The position numbers were made by a program, and so were the translations under genes. The notes beneath the pieces were generated by a model. It saw only the letters and a program-made list of their open reading frames with translations, was not told where the DNA came from and searched no databases. From assembly GCF_014652415.1 (NCBI RefSeq), contig NZ_BMYT01000001.1:434001-498000 (forward strand): a stretch of DNA of 64,000 nt, in the 5' to 3' direction. Below are positions 3,763-52,650 of the stretch, piece after piece. Each line of letters begins with the position of its first letter. Positions within the stretch are counted from its first letter, which is position 1. This DNA is from Affinundibacterium macrobrachii (GTDB taxonomy: Bacteria; Pseudomonadota; Gammaproteobacteria; Burkholderiales; Burkholderiaceae_D).

Positions 3763-5689
<1,927 letters not shown>

Positions 5690-8479
5690 ATGAAAAACAG
5701 CTTAACACCATCCGAATCGCACATTAGCACTACGACTGTCGCTCCAGCTTCTAAGACACTCAAATTAGGCAAACCGCTCTCCATCACAAAAACAAAGACG
5801 CCAGTAGTTCAAGCGGAGACGCGCACATTTGCCTTGCCAGTCTTGACCGAATCGCCAGCGCTTGAATCCGGCGAGATCATCAAAACACAAGTTCAATCAG
5901 TTACTGTCGTAACGAAACGACGCTCACGCTTAGCTGTGGTCAATGCGGCGGAAACATCTTCATCCGACTCTTCCGCTTCCAGCACGAATGAGGTAAGCGA
6001 TCTTGCGAACGAATCGACAGTGCATGAAAATGTGGCATCCGAGAATGCTACTGACAGCGCAAGCCATGTCGCAAACGATGACGTCACTGCGACAACGACC
6101 ACTGAAGTAGCAAACGAGATGAATGATGAGTACAGCAATTTGCTATCGAGTGCTGCCAACTTAAGTACAGGCCCAGCACCAGTAATCAAAGTAAAGAAAA
6201 AGAAAATCATTGCGAAGCTGACTGACACAGATGCCGAAGCTCAAGTATCAGCAACGCCAGCTCACAGCTCTATCGCCAAAGAAGCGGACGTAATCGCTGC
6301 ACCAACTATGGCTGCACCAACTATGGCTGCACCAACTTTCGCAACACAGTCTCTGGCATCAACGCAAATCGAAAAGCCAGCAAGCAAAGCACGTATCGCC
6401 AAAGCACCAATTATTAGCGATGCACCGTCAACAGCTGCGGCAGAAATTGACACTTCGGCATACGCATTTCCTACGGTAAAAGAAGCAGCGCGTCGTGGAC
6501 GCAAACCTTCTTCGCCGCAAGTATATAACGAAGAAATCCATGCGTTTAACGCATTGGAATCGGCTGAATTAAAACGCGCTGCGCGAGTAAAATCAGGAAA
6601 AGCAACGGCCAGCAGTGCAAGCAAAGAGCAACTGGAAGAATACCGCCAACGCTTAACCAAGTTAATTCAACTTGGTAAAGATCGTAGCTATCTAACCCAT
6701 GCTGAAATCAATGATCATCTACCAGAAAACGTCGATGATCCTGAGATGATACAAAGCATTATCAGCACCTTAAATGATGTTGGTATTGCGGTGTACGATC
6801 AAGCACCAGACGCAACCATGTTACTGCTGTCTGACAATGTCGCCAGCTCAGTTAGCGATGACGATGCCGAGGCAACTGCAGCGGTTGCCTTATCGACCGT
6901 AGATTCAGATTTTGGTCGCACCACAGATCCTGTGCGCATGTACATGCGTGAAATGGGTAGTGCAGAATTACTGACTCGCAGCGGTGAAATCGAGATTGCA
7001 AAGCGCATCGAATCCGGCTTAAAAGACATGCTGCAAGCTATTTCTGCATGCCCTTCCGTGATCCAAGAAGTTTTGGTTACCGCAGAAAAAGTCAAATCTG
7101 ATGATGTGATTATTGACGACATTATCGATGGCTTTCATGTGCCAGACAGCTTAGATATTCCTGCTCCAGTCATCTTAGCGAATACAGACGACGATGAAGA
7201 GGAAGAGGACGATGACGAAGGCAGCGCGGCAGAAACAAGCAATACCCTAAGCGCAGAACAGTTAGCGCAAATGAAGGCGACTGCCCTAGAAAAATTTGCT
7301 GCAATCAAGACCAGCTTTGACGATATGTTTGCGCAGATTGAAATGAATGCTTATCAATCACCTGCCTATCAACACGCGCAAGAAAACGTTGCGAAAGAAA
7401 TGGAAAGCATCCGTTTCAGCGTGAAGACGACTGAAAAATGGTGCGACATTTTGCGCAAGCAAATGACCGAACTGCGTCAAACCGAAAAACGCATGCTTGA
7501 ATTGTTGGTGGATCGCTGCGGTATGCCACGTGCCTACTTCATCACCCACTTCATCAAAAATGCGACGAATCGAGATTGGTTAGAACAAGAGATGGAGTCA
7601 CGCGAAGCGTATGGCGCCGTCCTGAAGCGGCATATTCATGCAGCGAGAGAACTGCAAGGACGCTTAATCGTTTTGGAAGAGTCAGCGAAAATACCACTCA
7701 GTGATTTACGCGCGATTCATAAGAAAATGATTTCTGCAGAAAAGCGCACTCGTGACGCCAAAGCAGCGATGACCGAGGCCAACTTGCGCTTGGTTATTTC
7801 TATCGCCAAAAAATACATCAACCGCGGCATGCAATTTTTGGATCTAATTCAAGAAGGCAATATCGGTCTACTCAAAGCAGTTGATAAGTTTGAGTATCGT
7901 CGTGGCTATAAATTTTCAACCTACGCAACTTGGTGGATACGTCAAGCGATCTCGCGCGCGATTGCAGATCAAGCGAGAACCATTCGCGTACCGGTTCATA
8001 TGATTGAAACCATTAACAAGTTGAATCGTATTAAACGCCAATGCTTGCAACAAAACGGTACAGAGCCAGATCCTGCATTGATTGCAGAGAAAATGGATTT
8101 GCCAGAGATCAAAGTACGTGAAATCTTGAAAATCGCCAAAGAACCAGTGTCACTAGACGTACCAATCGGCGACGATGGTGATTCACAATTGGGCGACTTT
8201 ATTGAAGACAATATCACGCTGTCACCAATGCAAGCAGCGATGCAGGCCTCGGTACAAGGCAAGCTGAAGGAAATCCTCGATGCCTTGAGCCCACGTGAAG
8301 CAAAAGTCTTGCGTATGCGCTTTGGTTTAGAAATGGCGAGTGATCATACTTTAGAAGAAGTTGGTAATCAGTTTGACGTTACGCGTGAACGGATTCGTCA
8401 AATCGAAGCGAAAGCGATGAAAAAACTGCGCCACCCTTCTCGCTTAGAACAATTGAAGAGCTTGCTAGAAAACAGCTAA
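5690..8479 (+). CDS. rpoD: RNA polymerase primary sigma factor RpoD (sigma-70)
   Basis: About 929 residues from the ATG at 5690. Residues 1-300 are a low-complexity Ala/Thr/Ser/Val stretch, a common Burkholderiales extension but long here, containing a 15-bp tandem repeat encoding AAPTM (6297-6340). Then follow region 1.1 ([19 protein letters not shown]), region 1.2 ([11 protein letters not shown]), an acidic non-conserved region ([12 protein letters not shown]), regions 2.1-2.4 ([37 protein letters not shown]), region 3 and region 4 helix-turn-helix ([20 protein letters not shown]). It directs RNA polymerase to housekeeping promoters. No good ribosome site precedes the ATG, so the exact start is uncertain. 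Confidence 0.96.
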
Positions 8480-15270: not shown

Positions 15271-16305
15271 TTAGACCAACAAATCCGGATTAGCGTCCTT
15301 CACTTTAAGCAAAGCTTCCATCAACAATTGCGGATTTCCATCGGCAAGTTTTTTGGAATCGGACAAGGTTTGGCGAAACGCGCGCGCACCGATCAAACCA
15401 AATGTCAGACCTAACATGTGTCGCGTAATACTATTTAACTTCAGACCTTTTCCGCCATCACCATGTTTGCTTAGCTGTTCAGAGATATATGGGATCATGG
15501 CTAACACAACTTGTTCACGTGAACGCGATGAAGCTTGATCGCCGTAATATCGTTGATCAAAACTATTCATGACATAAGGGTTATGGTAAGCCTCACGCCC
15601 CAACATCACGCCATCGACATGCAATAGATGTGTATCAATCTCTTCTACCGTTTTGATACCGCCATTGATAATGATTTCCAGAGTAGGAAAATCTTTCTTT
15701 AATTGGTAAGCGTAGTCATATTTCAACGGTGGCACTTCACGATTTTCTTTTGGTGATAGGCCTTTAAGAATCGCGTTTCGTGCATGCACGATAAACGTTT
15801 TACAGCCGGCATCGGCCACTTGCCCAACAAAATCACGAACAAAATCATACGAGTCAACTTGATCAATGCCAATTCGGTGCTTCACGGTGACATCGATATC
15901 AACCACGTCACGCATAGCTTTGACACAATCAGCAACCAACTGCGGCTCGGCCATCAAACAAGCACCAAATGCACCTTTTTGTACGCGCTCAGATGGACAG
16001 CCACAATTTAAATTAATTTCATCGTAGCCCCACTCCTGTCCACGCTTCGCAGCACTTGCCAAATCCGCTGGTTCGCTACCACCTAGCTGTAAAGCGACGG
16101 GATGCTCTTCCTCGTTGAAATCTAAATGACGTCCTAGATCACCATATAAAATTGCGCCAGTCGTTACCATCTCGGTATACAACCAAGTATGACGAGAAAT
16201 ATAGCGATGAAACAGACGACAATGGCGATCAGACCAATCCATCATGGGAGCTACGGAAATTGTTCTGCGTGGTATTGAGGGGCTTTTGTCTATGGTGATG
16301 CTCAT
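15271..16305 (-). CDS. dusA: tRNA-dihydrouridine synthase A, N-terminus supplied by the prophage
   Basis: A 344-residue FMN enzyme that reduces U20/U20a in tRNA D loops. Motifs are SVAPMMDWSDRHCR near residue 20, NLNCGCPSERVQKGAFGACLM with the catalytic Cys, VKHRIGID, and INGGI in the phosphate-binding region. The prophage integrated in codons for MMDWSD, so residues 1 to about 18 (MSITIDKSPSIPRRT) come from phage DNA. The original host start (GTG, reading MNSPIIPSRRISVAPMMDWS) remains beyond attR. The reading frame is intact, so function is probably preserved under a phage-end promoter. Confidence 0.95.
   Translation of the reverse strand: MSITIDKSPSIPRRTISVAPMMDWSDRHCRLFHRYISRHTWLYTEMVTTGAILYGDLGRHLDFNEEEHPVALQLGGSEPADLASAAKRGQEWGYDEINLNCGCPSERVQKGAFGACLMAEPQLVADCVKAMRDVVDIDVTVKHRIGIDQVDSYDFVRDFVGQVADAGCKTFIVHARNAILKGLSPKENREVPPLKYDYAYQLKKDFPTLEIIINGGIKTVEEIDTHLLHVDGVMLGREAYHNPYVMNSFDQRYYGDQASSRSREQVVLAMIPYISEQLSKHGDGGKGLKLNSITRHMLGLTFGLIGARAFRQTLSDSKKLADGNPQLLMEALLKVKDANPDLLV
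16229..16248. repeat. attL core (20-bp direct repeat)
   Basis: The 20 bp beginning TCAGACCAATCC and ending ATCATGGG are repeated exactly at 52631-52650. They lie inside dusA over the MMDWSD codons. The dusA 5' end is a known integration hot spot for tyrosine-recombinase prophages. Confidence 0.9.
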
Positions 16306-16397: not shown

Positions 16398-17408
16398 ATG
16401 GCATCGATACGATTAAGAAATGGGTCATGGGTTGCAGACATTCGCCGCAAAGGGCATAAGTCTATCAGTAAATCGTTTCCGACCAAAGGAAAGGCGCAAG
16501 TGTGGGCGCGGGAGGTCGAGGCGCAAATGGATGCGCTTGAATTTAAAGACGCGCGCGGGCTCACTGGAATTACTGTCAAAGAACTAATAAATCGATACAA
16601 AAAAGAAATTGGCGAGATCGCACCATTTCGCCGCTCTAAAACACTATCACTCGACACCTGGATAAAGACGCATGGCGAATTAACCGTTGCTGAACTGACT
16701 GCTGATTGCTTGATCGACTGGGTCACGCAACGCGCAAAAACAGTGAGCGGGTCCACAATTGCTGTTGAGCTTGCGTACCTAGGCGTAGTGCTGCGCACCG
16801 CAAAAGAGCTTTGGCGCTTACCAGTAGATAACACAATTACCACAACCGCTCGCGGCAGTCTAAAGTATCTTGGGATATCTGCGAAAAGCAAACACCGAGA
16901 GCGCAGACCAACACAAAAAGAGATCGACGATATCTGTCTCTATTTCACGACCAAGCGCCGACAAAAAGTGCCCATGGAAGATCTCATCCTATTTGCGATC
17001 GCCACCGCCATGCGTCTCGGAGAAATCCTACGTCTACAATGGGACGACATCAATCCTACCGACAAAACCATTATCATTAGAAACCGAAAACACCCCACTG
17101 AAAAAGAAGGAAACGATCAAGAAGTGCCACTGTTGGGAGCTGCTTATGACATAGCGATGCGCCAGCCAAAGACCAATGATCGAATCTTCCCCATTACCGA
17201 AGGGACCGTGAGCAGCCTTTTCCCCCGCGCATGCAACGCACTTGACATCAAAGACTTGCGCTTTCACGATCTACGACACGAGGGAGTTAGCCGTTTCTTT
17301 GAGCAAAAATACTCAATTGAGCAAGTTGCCTTACTATCTGGCCACCGCGATTGGAAAATGCTAGCACGCTATACACAAGTTAAAGCCAAGGATTTGCACC
17401 GTTCGTAA
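16398..17408 (+). CDS. Phage tyrosine recombinase (integrase)
   Basis: A 336-residue integrase. The N-terminal 60 residues resemble an arm-binding domain, residues 60-150 a SAM-like core-binding domain, and the C-terminus a catalytic domain with Arg in TAMRLGEILRLQWDD, HxxR in HDLRHEG, His in LLSGHRDWKML and the nucleophile Tyr in ARYTQ. It catalyses site-specific integration and excision at dusA. It lies just inside attL, facing into the prophage. No strong ribosome site precedes the ATG. Confidence 0.95.
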   Translation: MASIRLRNGSWVADIRRKGHKSISKSFPTKGKAQVWAREVEAQMDALEFKDARGLTGITVKELINRYKKEIGEIAPFRRSKTLSLDTWIKTHGELTVAELTADCLIDWVTQRAKTVSGSTIAVELAYLGVVLRTAKELWRLPVDNTITTTARGSLKYLGISAKSKHRERRPTQKEIDDICLYFTTKRRQKVPMEDLILFAIATAMRLGEILRLQWDDINPTDKTIIIRNRKHPTEKEGNDQEVPLLGAAYDIAMRQPKTNDRIFPITEGTVSSLFPRACNALDIKDLRFHDLRHEGVSRFFEQKYSIEQVALLSGHRDWKMLARYTQVKAKDLHRS

Positions 17409-42651: not shown

Positions 42652-43020
42652 ATGACAATCGCACAACGTATCACTATCGCCATGAAATTGGCGGGCATTC
42701 ACACTCAAGCAGATCTAGCACGCGCTAGCGGAGTGCCAACCTCGACCATCGCCAGGATACTTACGGGCGAATCTCAGCCAAATCCCGCCAATCTTGCAGC
42801 TATTGCTAACGCATGCGCAAGGAGCATTGACTGGATCGTGAACGGAACAAACATTGAAGACACGAGCAAACCAGAAGTTTCATTGGTTTACGTCACATTA
42901 GAAGAAATGAAGATCCTCACCGAATATCGAGAAGCCACAGATATGGGGAAGACCTTTATTAAGATTGCCGCAAAAAATGCAGAAAAACGATCACTGATCA
43001 GTGCGCCCACCGACCACTAG
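42652..43020 (+). CDS. Second XRE-family regulator, paralogue of the repressor
   Basis: A 122-residue protein with a helix-turn-helix very like that of the gene upstream (both have Q-ADLARASGVPTSTIARIL-type recognition helices and an EL/EM-LTHYR/LTEYR C-terminal motif), indicating tandem duplication. It has its own spacer of 82 bp and could tune or counteract the first repressor. Confidence 0.75.
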   Translation: MTIAQRITIAMKLAGIHTQADLARASGVPTSTIARILTGESQPNPANLAAIANACARSIDWIVNGTNIEDTSKPEVSLVYVTLEEMKILTEYREATDMGKTFIKIAAKNAEKRSLISAPTDH

Positions 43021-48897: not shown

Positions 48898-49350
48898 ATG
48901 CAAACAATCGAATCAACACAAGACGCACCAGCAACAACACCAGCCACCATCAAATTAGCCGACTTACCAAAAATCGGCACAGCATTTGCAGGCGGCATCT
49001 ATGCCGGCATTATCGGCGGTACCGATAAGCAGCCAGACTACGCACTCATTCACGCCACTGTAGATTTTGAATTGTTCGACATGAACTGGCAAGACGCGAT
49101 CACTCGCGCACAAGAGCCGATCAATAACCTTACAGATTGGTCATTGCCCAACCGCCGCGAAGCCCGTCTTTTATCGATCAACACGCGCGATAGCTTCGAT
49201 GTTGGTGACTGGTATTGGACGAATGAGCAGCACGCTAACAGCAGCGACTATGCATGGATGCAGAGCTTCGACTACGGCGGCCAGGACTACCTCCCCAAGT
49301 CGTATGAAGGCAGAGCTCGCGCAGTCCGCAGATTATTAATCATTCAGTAA
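48898..49350 (+). CDS. Retroelement target protein 1 (DUF1566 / C-type lectin-like)
   Basis: A 150-residue protein with GGAG before its ATG. Residues 85-150 form a DUF1566-like C-type lectin fold (SLPNRREARLLSINTRDSFD, WYWTNEQHA), and the end carries VR1. Variable residues relative to the template are 115, 123, 125, 126, 128 and 130-133; the closing YEGRARAVRRLLIIQ is constant. There is no signal peptide, lipobox or membrane segment. The N-terminal half has a GGIYAGIIGG strand, with no recognised docking domain. Ligand unknown. Confidence 0.88.
   Translation: MQTIESTQDAPATTPATIKLADLPKIGTAFAGGIYAGIIGGTDKQPDYALIHATVDFELFDMNWQDAITRAQEPINNLTDWSLPNRREARLLSINTRDSFDVGDWYWTNEQHANSSDYAWMQSFDYGGQDYLPKSYEGRARAVRRLLIIQ
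49227..49333 (+). repeat. VR1, variable repeat of target 1
   Basis: A 107-bp copy of the template repeat. It has 11 substitutions and all fall on template adenines (seven codons AAC plus CAC changed; e.g. AAC to CTC, TAC, GGC). No G, C or T of the template is changed. The last 34 bp (49300-49333) are identical to the template and serve as the likely initiation region for mutagenic homing. Confidence 0.93.
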
Positions 49351-49370
49351 TTCAATCATTCCACCCAACA

Positions 49371-49385
49371 TCGGGCGTAGCCCGA
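49371..49385 (+). other. Hairpin downstream of VR1
   Basis: TCGGGC-GTA-GCCCGA followed by a T-tract, 37 nt past VR1. Hairpins or cruciforms just beyond VR are required for efficient homing in the Bordetella phage retroelement. This one may also act as a terminator. Confidence 0.65.
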
Positions 49386-49417
49386 ATAAATTTTTTTGTT
49401 ATTTTTCGGAGCGAAGC

Positions 49418-49882
49418 ATGGAAATCACCATCGACCAAATTAAAAAAGAACACGCCAAAGTAGCGCAAATGATCGCGACTTTCGAAGCGAATCAAAAGAT
49501 CGCATCAGCCTACCCAATCACGATCAATTTGCCCGAGCTTAAAGCTGGTGAAAAGTATGTAGGCGCAATTATCAGCGCAGACGGCACCAAGCGCGATCAC
49601 ATCATTTTGCTGCCAGAAACCAAGGTCGACATCAATTGGAAAGATGCCATGGCATGGGCACAGTCTATCGGCGGCGATCTACCAAACCGCTGCGAATCAG
49701 CCCTGCTTTTCGCGACGATGAAAGACCAATTCGAGCCACAGTGGCACTGGACGAATGAGCAGCACGCTGGCAGCAGCGGCTATGCATGGATGCAGACCTT
49801 CAGCGGCGGCACCCAGGACAACTACCACGAGTCGTATGAAGGCAGAGCTCGCGCAGTCCGCAGATTATTAATCATTGAGTAA
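49418..49882 (+). CDS. Retroelement target protein 2 (DUF1566 / C-type lectin-like)
   Basis: A 154-residue paralogue of target 1. The C-terminal half has the same plan (DLPNRCESALLFATMKDQFE, WHWTNEQHAGSS) and carries VR2 with the same YEGRARAVRRLLII end. The N-terminus differs: a helical stretch (DQIKKEHAKVAQMIATFEAN) precedes a strand-rich KAGEKYVGAIISADGTKRDH. Variable residues are 118, 119, 121, 127, 129, 130, 132, 134, 136 and 138. No secretion signal is visible. Duplication of the target domain with different N-termini suggests two display contexts for one recognition fold. Confidence 0.88.
   Translation: MEITIDQIKKEHAKVAQMIATFEANQKIASAYPITINLPELKAGEKYVGAIISADGTKRDHIILLPETKVDINWKDAMAWAQSIGGDLPNRCESALLFATMKDQFEPQWHWTNEQHAGSSGYAWMQTFSGGTQDNYHESYEGRARAVRRLLIIE
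49759..49865 (+). repeat. VR2, variable repeat of target 2
   Basis: A 107-bp copy of the template repeat with 12 substitutions, all at template adenines (for example AAC to GGC, AGC, ACC, GAC, TAC and AAG to GAG). The last 34 bp (49832-49865) match the template exactly. VR1 and VR2 also share the flanks TGGACGAATGA on the left and TATTAATCATT on the right that the template lacks. Confidence 0.93.
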
Positions 49883-49904
49883 TTCAGTTATTTGATCGCA
49901 GCAC

Positions 49905-49917
49905 CGGGCGAAGCCCG
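49905..49917 (+). other. Hairpin downstream of VR2
   Basis: CGGGC-GAA-GCCCG, about 39 nt past VR2 and followed by a T-tract. It parallels the hairpin after VR1 in stem and distance. It may help homing or end transcription. Confidence 0.65.
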
Positions 49918-49934
49918 TCACGATTTTTTTTAGC

Positions 49935-50333
49935 ATGGCTCTTCACACGCATCTACCAATTTACAAAGAAGCTTACGATCTGCTGTCACTGACGGCGATT
50001 GTCACTAAAAATATGCCCAAGGATATTCGGGGCAGTATTGGCAGTGAGATTCGCCAACTTTGTCTCAACAGCGTAATTCTGATTGCACGTGCCAATGCGG
50101 CTTTTGACAAGGCCCCGCATTTAACGACCTTGCTTGAGCATGTTCAGACCGCAGAGATTTTGTTTCGCTTATCGAAAGATCAGCGCTATATCTCCACCGG
50201 ACAATATGCCAAAGCAATCGCGATCACTGATTCAATTGGTAAGCAAGCGAGTGGGTGGAAGAAACAAGCCGCCGCAGTAGCTGCGCCCGTTACAGAACCG
50301 TCAAGGCAGTCATGTCAGAGCGCTTTATTTTAA
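49935..50333 (+). CDS. avd: Accessory variability determinant (Avd)
   Basis: A 132-residue all-helical basic protein with the Avd / four-helix bundle pattern: HLPIYKEAYDLLSLTAIVTKNMPKDIRGSIGSEIRQLC...NAAFDKAPHLTTLLEHVQTAEILFRLSKDQRYIS. Avd pentamers bind the reverse transcriptase and template RNA and are essential for mutagenic reverse transcription. It lies between the targets and the template, the same order as in the Bordetella phage system. Confidence 0.9.
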   Translation: MALHTHLPIYKEAYDLLSLTAIVTKNMPKDIRGSIGSEIRQLCLNSVILIARANAAFDKAPHLTTLLEHVQTAEILFRLSKDQRYISTGQYAKAIAITDSIGKQASGWKKQAAAVAAPVTEPSRQSCQSALF

Positions 50334-50477
50334 TCTGGTCATGCCGCTTGGTTGCAAATAGCAGCCAACCGCCAAGCACACCACAGATACTACCCGCCCA
50401 TGCGGACAAGTCTGGTGCAGTTTGCATCGTGATCGGCTCACGCCTTCGCCATGCCGACGTAGATAGCATGAAATTAC

Positions 50478-50584
50478 GCAGCACGCTAACAACAGCGACT
50501 ATGCATGGATGCAGAACTTCAACAACGGCAACCAGAACAACAACCACAAGTCGTATGAAGGCAGAGCTCGCGCAGTCCGCAGAT
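50478..50584 (+). repeat. TR, template repeat of the retroelement
   Basis: The 107-bp invariant template, between avd and the reverse transcriptase. In target frame it reads AAC repeatedly (NNSDYAWMQNFNNGNQNNNHKS), the codon that gives wide amino-acid choice without stop codons when its adenines are randomised. It has 38 adenines. It is transcribed as part of an RNA spanning avd to the reverse transcriptase. Confidence 0.95.
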
Positions 50585-50596
50585 AAGAACGATACT

Positions 50597-51709
50597 ATGA
50601 GCAGCCATGCTAACTTTTCTTTTGAAGCACTTGTGCAAGCGTATTTTGATTGCCGCAAGCACAAGCGCAACACACCAAGCGCCCTCGCTTTTGAGCAAAA
50701 CCTAGAGCGCAACCTGATCGCGCTAAGCGAAGAATTAGCCGACGGCAGCTACCAGCCCGGCAAATCGATTTGCTTTGTGGTCACACGTCCAAAAGCGCGC
50801 GAAGTATGGGCCGCAGATTTCCGCGATCGCATCGTGCACCACCTGCTATACAACCACATTGCACCACGTTTTTATGCCAGCTTTATCCAAGACAGCTGCG
50901 CATGCATACCTGGGCGCGGGACACTCTACGCAGCTAATCGCCTAGAACACAAAATCCGCAGCGCAACGCAAAATTGGTCAAAGCCCTGCTTTTACCTCAA
51001 ATGCGACTTGGCCAACTTCTTTGTCAGCATCGACAAAAGCATTCTGCAAACACAGTTGGCCAAACGCATCACCGAACCATTCTGGATGCAGCTAACCAAC
51101 ACGATTCTATGGCACGACCCACGCACCAACTTTGAGCTACGCGGCGCACAAGCCCTACAAAGCAAAGTGCCAGCGCATAAGCAATTGAGCAACCAACAGC
51201 AGAACAAAGGCCTACCCATTGGCAACCTGTCGAGCCAATTCTTTGCCAACGTGTACCTAGACGCACTGGATCAATTCGCCAAGCACCAGATCAGAGCAAA
51301 GCACTATATCCGTTACGTTGACGATTTCTTGATCCTGCACGAATCAACAGCATGGCTGAACGATGCCCACGCCAAGATCAAAGCATGGCTACCAGCCAAT
51401 CTCAACGCCAAATTAAACGATAGCAAAACCATCTTGCAACCAGTAAGCCGCGGCGTCGACTTTGTTGGCCAAGTCATCAAGCCATGGCACAACACCACAA
51501 GAAAACGCACCGCCAATGTCGCGATTGAACGCTGCAAACGTATCAACAAAGACGATTTTTACACCACAGCAAATAGCTATTTCGGCTTGCTTGGCCAAGC
51601 CAATAGCAGCCACAAACAACGCGCACAGCTAGCGAAGATCGCTTTGCTGCGCGGGCATTCAATCAATAAAGAACTCACCAAAATTTATCGAATTAAAGGG
51701 CAATCATGA
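50597..51709 (+). CDS. Diversity-generating retroelement reverse transcriptase
   Basis: A 370-residue group-II-intron-like reverse transcriptase. It has the catalytic YVDD at residues 240-243 (RYVDDFLIL), an upstream D in LKCDLANFFVSID, and the DGR-type motif LPIGNLSSQFFANVYLD at 206-222, whose IGNxxSQ form is diagnostic for this class and linked to low adenine fidelity. It copies TR RNA into mutagenised cDNA. The open frame extends upstream through TR to 50255; I choose the ATG after TR. A downstream gene overlaps its stop (ATGA). Confidence 0.95.
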   Translation: MSSHANFSFEALVQAYFDCRKHKRNTPSALAFEQNLERNLIALSEELADGSYQPGKSICFVVTRPKAREVWAADFRDRIVHHLLYNHIAPRFYASFIQDSCACIPGRGTLYAANRLEHKIRSATQNWSKPCFYLKCDLANFFVSIDKSILQTQLAKRITEPFWMQLTNTILWHDPRTNFELRGAQALQSKVPAHKQLSNQQQNKGLPIGNLSSQFFANVYLDALDQFAKHQIRAKHYIRYVDDFLILHESTAWLNDAHAKIKAWLPANLNAKLNDSKTILQPVSRGVDFVGQVIKPWHNTTRKRTANVAIERCKRINKDDFYTTANSYFGLLGQANSSHKQRAQLAKIALLRGHSINKELTKIYRIKGQS

Positions 51710-52299
51710 AAACAACAGACCACGATTCCATAGACAACCTACTTTTGCGCGAAGGTGGGTATCCGCATCTACCTGAAGCACCAGACCATGTTGCTGATGT
51801 CACCAAAATGGAATCAGTACAGCCAATAGAGTCAATGCAAGGAGAGTATGAAGACTGGACTGCTTATCCTAGGCCTGCATTGGCAGTTAAAGCCGCATTT
51901 CCTGAGCGTGACCTAACGAAGCCTGCCGAGCAGCAAGGCGTGTTTAATAAATTTATCGTTCGGCGTGTTGATGGAAGTGACGCCAACGGCGGCAAGCATC
52001 ACGGCTGCAGATACTTTGTTCTTGACCTCGACCACGATGTGAACGCACCAGCCGCAATGCGAGCTTATGCCGAAAAGTGCAAAGAGTCACACCCTGCACT
52101 TAGCCAAGAGTTGTTTGCGCAGTTTGGTCAATCAGCACAGCCAGAGCAAGAGCCTATCAACGTAACCAACTCGATGGCTTATGCGTTTCACCGCGCTCTT
52201 ACAGACGGAACTTTGAGCGAAAACGAACTCGAAGAAATAAAAATTGGCCTTCGTGCAGCATTGTGCAATCTGTCGCAGCCAGCCACACAAGGAGAATAA
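51706..52299 (+). CDS. Hypothetical phage protein (KHHGCRYFVLDLDHD family)
   Basis: A 197-residue acidic protein. The central NKFIVRRVDGSDANGGKHHGCRYFVLDLDHDVNAPAAMRAYA stretch (52 kb gene) is a known pattern in phage and plasmid proteins of unknown function. It is coupled to the reverse transcriptase by an ATGA overlap, yet relatives occur without retroelements, so it is likely not part of that system. Confidence 0.65.
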   Translation: MKTTDHDSIDNLLLREGGYPHLPEAPDHVADVTKMESVQPIESMQGEYEDWTAYPRPALAVKAAFPERDLTKPAEQQGVFNKFIVRRVDGSDANGGKHHGCRYFVLDLDHDVNAPAAMRAYAEKCKESHPALSQELFAQFGQSAQPEQEPINVTNSMAYAFHRALTDGTLSENELEEIKIGLRAALCNLSQPATQGE

Positions 52300-52301
52300 T
52301 C

Positions 52302-52511
52302 TTGCAAACTGAATTCATGCTCCTATCAATCTACAACAAACCTGTACTAACTTTAGAACAAGTTTGCGAAGTAGTTGGCATTGGCCAAGCGACCGCATAC
52401 GTGCAACGATCAAACGGCACGTTCCCAATTCCCATGTTCGGCAAACCGTTACGCGCAGATCTAAGAGACGTTGCAAAATACTTAGACGAAATGCGCAAGT
52501 CCGCAAAATAA
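52302..52511 (+). CDS. PrtN-like helix-turn-helix protein near attR
   Basis: A 69-residue protein with a TTG start seven bases after GGAG. The pattern KPVLTLEQVCEVVGIGQATAYVQRSNGTFPIPMFG followed by DLRDVAKYLDEMRK matches PrtN/AlpA-type DNA-binding proteins. Placed last before attR, it could be an excisionase-like factor or an activator. Followed by a strong terminator. Confidence 0.7.
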   Translation: MQTEFMLLSIYNKPVLTLEQVCEVVGIGQATAYVQRSNGTFPIPMFGKPLRADLRDVAKYLDEMRKSAK

Positions 52512-52630: not shown

Positions 52631-52650
52631 TCAGACCAATCCATCATGGG
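52631..52650. repeat. attR core (20-bp direct repeat)
   Basis: Identical to the attL core at 16229-16248. It marks the right end of the prophage. Confidence 0.9.

What the first reader, a model, noticed from the sequence alone, without database searches (positions are those of the whole stretch)
48898..51709. Complete diversity-generating retroelement in a dusA prophage with two target genes
All parts are present in the order known from Bordetella phage BPP-1: targets with VR, avd, TR, reverse transcriptase with the IGNLSSQ and YVDD motifs. One template serves two different adjacent targets, both short DUF1566-like lectin-fold proteins. The prophage looks intact, so the system may be active. 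This is the best candidate in the window for an undescribed system.
Basis: partly seen in the sequence, partly recalled or inferred. Interest (0 to 1): 0.95.

Follow-up and report, generated by a model that had tools for sequence, protein, structure and literature searches.

The report
Gene diversifier with upstream RNA scaffold
A phage lying dormant in a bacterial chromosome carries a cassette whose template differs from matching stretches in two phage genes only at adenines, and right in front of the template sits a conserved folded RNA that likely grips the template's far end so that copying would start there, on the opposite side from the one well-studied system.

Summary
In detail: a complete diversity-generating retroelement (DGR) sits near the right end of a 36.4-kb dusA prophage, with two lectin-fold targets, avd, template repeat (TR) and reverse transcriptase (RT). 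Over 109 nt, TR and VRs differ only at TR adenines (12 and 13 sites). Two targets per template and DUF1566 targets are already described, so that part is ordinary.

A full Rfam RT-15 RNA (RF03018) runs from the end of avd to the first TR base. It meets the TR start in 87 of 91 distinct related loci, and 20 of 20 examined RT-15 genome hits have a TR beside it. A strand that Rfam draws unpaired is complementary to the TR's 3' end, with compensatory changes (16:1 in sister contrasts). In BPP-1 the DGR RNA known to Rfam (Phage_DGR) lies on the other side of the TR; in a 22-row RT tree the two layouts fall on opposite sides of a 100/99 branch. I conclude that RT-15 is the 5' scaffold of a mirror-image DGR RNA; priming at its junction is inferred. 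New variant of a known kind; the original RT-15 paper and the structure paper could not be read.

The parts
15271..16305 (-). dusA, host tRNA dihydrouridine synthase, holds the left att core
   Evidence: NCBIfam DusA equivalog 539 bits over 269
16229..16248 (.). left att core, 20-bp direct repeat
   Evidence: exact repeat with 52631-52650
16398..17408 (+). tyrosine integrase of the prophage
   Evidence: PHROG integrase 2e-50
48898..49350 (+). target gene 1, predicted C-type-lectin-fold protein, 150 aa
49227..49335 (+). VR1
   Evidence: 109 nt, 12 mismatches, all at TR adenines
49371..49385 (+). GC-rich hairpin 35 nt past VR1, possible cruciform or terminator
49418..49882 (+). target gene 2, 154 aa, related to target 1
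   Evidence: ORF; PHROG 4245 2e-07; 41% identity to target 1 in alignment
49759..49867 (+). VR2
   Evidence: 109 nt, 13 mismatches, all at TR adenines
49905..49917 (+). GC-rich hairpin 37 nt past VR2
49935..50333 (+). avd
   Evidence: PHROG 3206 1.3e-34, Pfam bAvd, NCBIfam DivGenRetAVD 51.9 bits, below its cut-off of 80
50281..50478 (+). Rfam RT-15 structured RNA, proposed 5' scaffold of the DGR RNA; its 5' hairpin overlaps the end of avd
   Evidence: RF03018 147.6 bits, gathering 82, full length; covariation
50328..50337 (+). S5: RT-15 strand predicted to pair with the 3' end of the TR
50338..50338 (+). invariant G just 3' of S5, unpaired in the RNAalifold consensus; proposed region of cDNA priming (inferred)
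   Evidence: invariant column in 68 of 68 rows
50478..50586 (+). template repeat TR
50580..50589 (+). S3: TR 3' end plus flank, partner of S5 (9 of 10 pairs in the window, one of them U-G)
50597..51709 (+). DGR reverse transcriptase, 370 aa
   Evidence: PHROG 1423 'Reverse transcriptase' 1.3e-117; BPP-1 RT chain 8ub7 1.9e-36
52631..52650 (.). right att core

Best explanation
This is a complete diversity-generating retroelement in which the conserved structured RNA RT-15 ends exactly where the template repeat begins, and this RNA is predicted to pair with the template's 3' end so that the Avd-RT complex would start its adenine-mutagenic cDNA copy there. Shown by sequence: the parts, the adenine-only TR/VR differences, the RT-15/TR junction in nearly every close relative, and covariation between the RT-15 strand S5 and the TR 3' end plus its flank (S3). 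Inferred: one transcript folds as 5'-P1 hairpin-S5-G-multi-branched domain-TR-S3-3', the S5:S3 helix closes the RNA, RT and Avd bind the RT-15 domain, and cDNA starts beside that helix, most likely from a 2'-OH or nicked end at the S5/G junction. The cDNA would run through the TR, miscopy adenines and stop at RT-15; it would then replace VR1 or VR2 and diversify the ligand-binding surface of the two lectin-fold proteins. BPP-1 is reported to do the same with a spacer on the 3' side, so this is a permuted version of that RNA.
For: DGR: 12 and 13 mismatches, all at TR adenines, over 109 nt. Between the window and a sister prophage (L002), 0 of 65 shared non-A TR sites vary in any of four VRs, 25 of 36 shared A sites do, and at 4 of 7 sites where the two TRs differ all four VRs carry their own TR's letter; two more sites fit if the sister's A mutated, one (site 106, at the edge) does not follow. 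RT-15: 147.6 bits. Association: Rfam hit in 4 of 9 and 15 of 15 relatives scanned (24 of 25 loci held then), the five misses having RTs at most 47% identical; nhmmer hit in 107 of 113 loci, 19 of which built the model. TR starts within -7 to +5 nt of the RT-15 end in 87 of 91 distinct loci. Search by RNA alone: of 24 over-threshold matches in 23 of 392 family genomes, 20 were examined; 20 of 20 have a TR beside RT-15 (19 at its end, L161 a partial match from +38) and 18 an RT motif within 1.5 kb. Of these 20, three (L162-L164) are cassettes also found by RT. RNA fold: 36 of 48 predicted pairs show double changes. S5:S3: 82.7% of 675 cells paired vs 73.8 +/- 0.8 shuffled and 28.5-48.0 in slid registers; covariation score 0.241 vs 0.087 +/- 0.010 shuffled and 0.032-0.099 slid; 7 of 10 pairs with double changes vs 4.7 shuffled. 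Tree-controlled: in 28 disjoint sister contrasts whose S5 and S3 both differ, own beats swapped partner 16:1, 11 ties, p 1.4e-4. RT start not needed: in L004, L034, L071, L131 and L132 an extra 0.8-1.2 kb lies between TR and RT while RT-15-TR stays joined; the insert is a PAPS-reductase-like gene in L004 and a queuine-transferase-like gene in L131. Mirror image: in BPP-1 Rfam's Phage_DGR RNA (104.7 bits) and in BalMu-1 Rfam's RT-14 (70.4 bits) lie between TR and RT; the window's stretch has no Phage_DGR match. RT tree: 8 of 8 BPP-1-layout rows on one side of a 100/99 branch, the 8 RT-15 rows, 4 other long-5'-gap rows and 2 of unknown layout on the other.
Against: No expression or cDNA data. 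Priming at the S5/G junction is by analogy only. Position 5 of the helix is usually mismatched in TR (42 of 90 paired). S5 also fits VR 3' ends: VR contrasts lean the same way (15:3, p 0.0038, positions 1-9; 14:4, p 0.015, positions 5-9, against 15:1, p 0.00026 for TR), so a role in target pairing is not excluded. The number of further pair types is only weakly above shuffles (17 vs 14.3, reached by 41 of 500). Single-position tree tests do not reach significance (median p 0.25 and 0.22). Folding energy alone does not set RT-15 apart (mean z -1.11 vs -0.65 downstream, 34 of 68 rows). Single-sequence duplex energy is not better than shuffles in the window or three relatives, and in the window and L003 the best duplex found is not S5. 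One of 80 close RT loci (L036) has no RT-15 by nhmmer or Rfam. Part of S5 overlaps the avd stop codon, so coding constrains that strand too.
Confidence: 0.72

Rival explanations
1. A BPP-1-like spacer 3' of the TR, hidden in the start of the RT gene, primes the cDNA, and RT-15 is only the upstream element that ends reverse transcription.
For: In BPP-1 a motif in the 3' end of avd terminates reverse transcription and the 3' spacer recruits bRT-Avd and primes (PMC12875486, passages). 8 of 34 sampled downstream stretches have folding z below -2, against 6 of 34 for RT-15.
Against: Only 10 nt separate TR and RT here; no Phage_DGR RNA is found, though the model finds BPP-1's. In L004 and L131 an unrelated gene follows the TR. 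The conserved, covarying RNA and the strand that pairs with the TR 3' end are on the 5' side.
Confidence: 0.14
2. RT-15 is a cis-regulatory leader that controls avd-RT translation or transcription and has no part in cDNA synthesis.
For: It overlaps the end of avd and lies upstream of the RT gene.
Against: It stays with the TR, not the RT, when a gene is inserted between them, and covaries with the TR's 3' end.
Confidence: 0.07
3. S5 pairs mainly with the 3' end of the VR in the target gene, as a guide for target choice.
For: S5 fits VR positions 0-3 and 5 in 156-171 of 172 VRs, position 4 in 129 and position 6 in 118; VR contrasts are 14:4 and 15:3.
Against: Pairing in the flank (positions 7 and 8) holds for TR (72 and 59 of 90) and not for VR (71 and 23 of 172); the VR letters there are also set by the target's C-terminal codons.
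Confidence: 0.1
4. The cassette is a dead relic in this strain.
For: No activity data; no second strain of the same species was compared.
Against: All ORFs are open, TR and both VRs agree at 69 of 69 non-adenine sites of the 109-nt core, and VRs follow their own TR in the sister prophage.
Confidence: 0.08

Closest known systems
Bordetella phage BPP-1 DGR (NC_005357) and its Rfam RNA Phage_DGR (RF03022)
   Same: targets-avd-TR-RT order, adenine-only TR/VR differences, Avd, RT 30% identical over 308 positions
   Different: BPP-1 has avd abutting TR and a 144-nt spacer between TR and brt, where Phage_DGR scores 104.7 bits; it folds, recruits bRT-Avd and primes (PMC12875486, passages). Here the 144 nt are between avd and TR and hold RT-15. 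BPP-1's target is a tail protein; these targets stand near phage regulatory and excision genes.
Rfam RT-15 RNA (RF03018)
   Same: full-length match, 147.6 bits
   Different: Rfam's label here is only 'RT-15 RNA', type sRNA; its edge at the TR and its pairing with the TR 3' end are outside the model
Rfam RT-14 RNA in Bacillus phage BalMu-1
   Same: another RT-numbered RNA inside a DGR
   Different: it lies 3' of the TR, between TR and RT, as in BPP-1
Multi-target DUF1566 DGRs (for example Vibrio cholerae 1311-69; PMC6642488)
   Same: one TR, two VRs in two DUF1566 genes (passages)
   Different: no upstream RNA is mentioned in the passages seen
Burkholderia phage Magia and Pseudomonas phage Cruim01
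   Same: RT-15 and TR present; Magia notes a 'potential DGR target', Cruim01's record annotates a misc_RNA RT-15
   Different: in the stretches seen neither record links RT-15 to a template repeat
Retrons
   Same: proposed geometry: upstream strand paired with a strand behind the template, G beside it (retron side recalled, not tested)
   Different: not a retron RT (retron St85 model 48.2 bits, cut-off 235); the template is a protein-coding repeat

Membership tests
Diversity-generating retroelement | RT of the DGR clade | tested here: met
   best of 9 solved sequences is 8ub7 (1.9e-36; next 4.5e-08), which is identical to BPP-1 brt; 30% identity to brt. PHROG 1423 is labelled only 'Reverse transcriptase'. 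The tree held no non-DGR outgroup
Diversity-generating retroelement | TR/VR pair differing only at TR adenines | tested here: met
   12 and 13 mismatches, all at A, over 109 nt
Diversity-generating retroelement | Avd or other accessory protein | tested here: met
Diversity-generating retroelement | VR at the 3' end of a ligand-binding (C-type lectin) target | tested here: met
Diversity-generating retroelement | mutagenic retrohoming | not testable with these tools
   needs reads or an assay; sister comparison agrees with it
Diversity-generating retroelement | hairpin/cruciform just 3' of the VR | tested here: inconclusive
   hairpins 35 and 37 nt after VR1 and VR2, followed by T-runs; BPP-1's spacer is 4 bp (PMC3240598, passages); 68 of 164 VRs have one within 90 nt vs 6 shuffled
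BPP-1-type DGR RNA | structured spacer between TR and RT (Phage_DGR) | tested here: not met
   10 nt in the window; no Phage_DGR match, while BPP-1's own is found
Rfam RT-15 | score above the curated gathering threshold, full length | tested here: met
   147.6 vs 82 bits, positions 1-192 of 192
Retron | retron-clade RT | tested here: not met
   NCBIfam retron St85 48.2 bits vs 235; solved retron-type RTs at 0.0044 vs BPP-1 RT at 1.9e-36
Retron | 2'-5' branched RNA-cDNA primed from a G | not testable with these tools
   only an invariant unpaired G at the corresponding place; retron feature recalled

The most novel reading that the evidence does not exclude
DGRs come in two mirror-image RNA classes that split deep in the RT tree: one, like BPP-1 (Phage_DGR, RT-14), keeps its scaffold and primer 3' of the template; the other, of which RT-15 is the best-conserved form, keeps it 5' and starts cDNA retron-style at the junction of a helix that pins the template's 3' end, so an orphan Rfam family is the working core of a whole DGR branch.
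Probability: 0.5. Interest if true: 0.85.

Novelty: new variant of a known kind. Interest (0 to 1): 0.65.

Why it matters
How a DGR RT finds and starts its template is known in detail, as far as I could see, from one phage. If the scaffold can sit on either side of the template, priming geometry is not fixed by gene order, an RT-numbered RNA gains a function, and DGR finders get a sharp landmark: in the loci checked, an RT-15 hit marks the TR start to within a few nucleotides. The helix gives a direct test of priming in a compact RNA (about 310 nt), and a second kind of template RNA would be of use to those who build targeted diversification tools. It also points to a phage DGR class whose targets are small lectin-fold proteins set apart from the tail genes, with unknown roles.

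Tried and rejected
Two targets as the novelty: rejected, common in print. Remote VRs or a second cassette: none found in the genome. RT-15 in divergent RTs: no gathering-level or nhmmer hit in L006-L009 and L026. Two of those (L006, L008) have upstream strands complementary to the TR 3' end (shuffled fraction 0.01 and 0.003), while L009 and L137 do not (0.26, 0.27). Folding-energy z-scores as proof of the scaffold: not discriminating. Single-sequence model of target 2: pLDDT 38.4, not used. Class-wide census of RT-15: 1 of 369 genomes, the window's own, so the family-level census was used (23 of 392 genomes over the cut-off; 10 more only at E up to 0.001, treated as chance). Defence reading of the RT: DRT and UG models hit the common RT core (best generic RT model 130.6 bits), but PHROG 1423 scores 395.4 and the best solved match is BPP-1's RT.

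Novelty check: Rfam already names one DGR RNA (Phage_DGR), which I found only on re-checking; it makes it likelier that the makers of the RT families knew of DGR links, so I lowered the interest score from 0.68 to 0.65. The original RT-motif paper, the 2025 RNP structure paper and the 2017 priming paper are not held. No held paper has 'RT-15 RNA' or its variants or RF03018, none has DGR with RT-15 (search 9); of four with DGR and Rfam (search 67) I saw passages of one (PMC10589994: Rfam used for tRNA and other annotation) and titles of three. PMC8143477, on a Bacteroides phage DGR, cites the RT-motif paper; passages and one section seen did not show what for.

Rows dropped before counts: 113 loci scanned by nhmmer, 107 hit, 91 after identical sequences were removed; L091 dropped from the helix count because no anchor was found; L023 lacked the RT motif when RTs were clustered to 68 rows. 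VR and TR finding allowed only A mismatches by design.
Full report
CHECK. The stretch 48898-51709 holds two ORFs with VRs, avd, TR and RT in that order on the + strand. TR 50478-50586 matches VR1 49227-49335 and VR2 49759-49867 over 109 nt; the 12 and 13 differences are all at TR adenines (ends set at the first non-A mismatch). Avd scores as DGR Avd. The RT's best solved relative is 8ub7 (1.9e-36), whose RT chain is identical to BPP-1 brt; direct comparison gives 30% identity over 308 positions. No further TR-like copy was found in the genome. The prophage has integrase, terminase, portal, capsid, tail and lysis genes and a 20-bp att core repeated 36,402 bp apart, one copy inside dusA. The DGR lies at the far end from the integrase gene, on the strand opposite to the late genes, between a repressor-like gene at 42652-43020 and an excisionase-like HTH gene at 52314-52511.

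SISTER COMPARISON. L002 (Oxalobacteraceae bacterium UBA7693, RT 95% identical), on a contig also held for a genome of the same genus (G387), has a related prophage with the same genes behind it; aligned prophage pieces are 76-89% and flank pieces 83-90% identical. At 65 shared non-A TR sites none of the four VRs differs; at 36 shared A sites 25 vary. The TRs differ at 7 sites: at 82, 83, 86 and 88 both VRs in each prophage carry their own TR's letter; 77 and 84 fit if the sister's A mutated; 106, at the edge, does not follow. This is what repeated homing would leave.

THE RNA. Rfam finds RT-15 (RF03018) at 50281-50478, 147.6 bits, full length, the only one in the genome. It starts inside avd and ends on the first base of the TR. 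In the first two scans RT-15 was found in 4 of 9 and 15 of 15 relatives (24 of 25 loci); the five without it have RTs at most 47% identical. A wider scan kept the best 80 of 548 loci; 79 of 80 have it by nhmmer, and so have 7 of 7 phage loci fetched from the 9 phage records with RTs over 60% identical. In 87 of 91 distinct loci the TR starts within -7 to +5 nt of the RT-15 end; L042, L050 and L099 give only partial TRs and L072, on a 2.1-kb contig, none. Searching by RNA alone, 23 of 392 family genomes have 24 over-threshold matches; I examined the 20 that became loci in that call: 20 of 20 have a TR beside it (L161 a partial one) and 18 an RT motif within 1.5 kb; L162 and L163 are the cassettes of G389 and G388, with the RT further on. 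So in this sample RT-15 is a DGR component.

PAIRING WITH THE TEMPLATE. RNAalifold on 68 sequences whose RTs are below 85% identical supports the RT-15 fold with double changes at 36 of 48 pairs. The strand between the 5' hairpin and the main domain, unpaired in Rfam and in that fold, reads NNNNAAUCYG in most rows and is complementary to the TR's last bases and the next ones, CRGAUUNNNN. In 90 loci (L091 left out) positions 0-4 pair in 86-90; position 5 in 42; position 6 in 83 (UA 45, GC 22, CG 9, UG 5, AU 2); position 7 in 72; position 8 in 59 (including UA 40, AU 9, CG 6, GC 3). Over 10 pairs in 68 rows, 82.7% of 675 cells pair; covariation score 0.241 against 0.087 +/- 0.010 in shuffles and 0.032-0.099 in slid registers; the count of further pair types is only weakly raised (41 of 500 shuffles reach it). 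Shuffles ignore kinship, so I compared disjoint sister rows on an RT tree: own partner beats swapped partner 16:1 with 11 ties (p 1.4e-4); for the flank (positions 5-9) 15:1. Single-position tests on supported branches are not significant. The VR 3' end also fits S5 at positions 0-6 and its contrasts lean the same way (15:3; 14:4); positions 7 and 8 fit the TR and not the VR.

LAYOUT. In BPP-1 avd abuts TR and 144 nt separate TR and brt; here 144 nt separate avd and TR and 10 nt separate TR and RT. PMC12875486 (passages) says that in BPP-1 the 3' spacer folds, recruits bRT-Avd and primes from an internal adenine, and that a motif in avd ends the copy. Rfam agrees on the place: its Phage_DGR RNA covers BPP-1 2750-2882, between TR and brt, and its RT-14 lies between TR and RT in BalMu-1. 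Neither scan of the window or its genome found Phage_DGR. In L004, L034, L071, L131 and L132 an extra 0.8-1.2 kb lies between TR and RT while RT-15-TR stays intact; L004 and L131 carry unrelated metabolic genes there. Of the divergent comparators, 8 of 8 with BPP-1 layout have avd within 64 nt of the TR; L137, L006, L008 and L009 have 129-306 nt there and under 80 nt before the RT (their avd genes checked, L137's by annotation). L007 gave no TR and L026 no avd. In a 22-row tree the 8 BPP-1-layout rows are one side of a 100/99 branch and the other 14 rows the other side. The sample is small and was chosen by similarity to the window, the root is arbitrary, and L114 and L144 have long branches. 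Rfam has no family for the four non-RT-15 long-gap rows.

MECHANISM. The nested order hairpin-S5-G-domain-TR-S3 would place the TR's 3' end beside the invariant G that follows S5. I recall that retrons start cDNA from a G in such a place, and that the BPP-1 complex holds an RNA duplex in its active site; neither paper could be read. I therefore propose start at the S5/G junction, copying toward the 5' end, stop at RT-15, and homing into VR1 or VR2. Shown: sequence, fold and covariation. Inferred: binding, priming, termination, homing, activity.

NOVELTY. No held paper mentions RT-15 RNA. That the name RT-15 stands for 'near a reverse transcriptase' is recalled. Rfam's Phage_DGR shows that DGR RNAs as such are known. 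The membership of the cassette is ordinary; the 5' scaffold and its helix with the TR end are, as far as I could check, a new variant.

Noticed in passing
L131 (rc) 5273-6037 and L004 7180-7944: Genes inserted between TR and RT in relatives: a queuine tRNA-ribosyltransferase-like ORF in L131 and a phosphoadenosine phosphosulfate reductase-like ORF in L004. A natural test that RT-15-TR is one module and RT another.
   Followed up: partly
L008 about 930-1135 and L006 7700-7975: Two divergent DGRs without RT-15 have, between avd and TR, strands complementary to the TR 3' end (L008 a long near-perfect stretch), hinting that the 5' layout is wider than the RT-15 family.
   Followed up: partly
L139 4798-4941 (Bacillus phage BalMu-1): Rfam RT-14 lies between TR and RT of this DGR; RT-numbered families may thus mark both DGR layouts.
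   Followed up: no
window 49371-49385 and 49905-49917: Matching GC hairpins with GTA/GAA loops 35 and 37 nt after the two VRs, each followed by a T-run; could be terminators or DGR cruciforms.
   Followed up: partly
window 51706-52299: ORF overlapping the RT stop; its middle matches PHROG 9572, labelled sulfatase-modifying factor enzyme (4.2e-19). Possibly part of the DGR operon.
   Followed up: no
window 50328-50337: S5 overlaps the avd stop codon (50331-50333), so coding and RNA constraints may coincide there.
   Followed up: no
L134 (genus relative): One TR with four VRs of about 106 nt spread over about 3 kb, more targets than the window.
   Followed up: no
L036: The only one of 80 close RT loci without an RT-15 hit; may have lost or moved the RNA.
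   Followed up: no
L028 5708-5900 (Pseudomonas phage Cruim01): Public record already annotates a misc_RNA RT-15 next to the RT without naming a DGR in the stretch seen.
   Followed up: no
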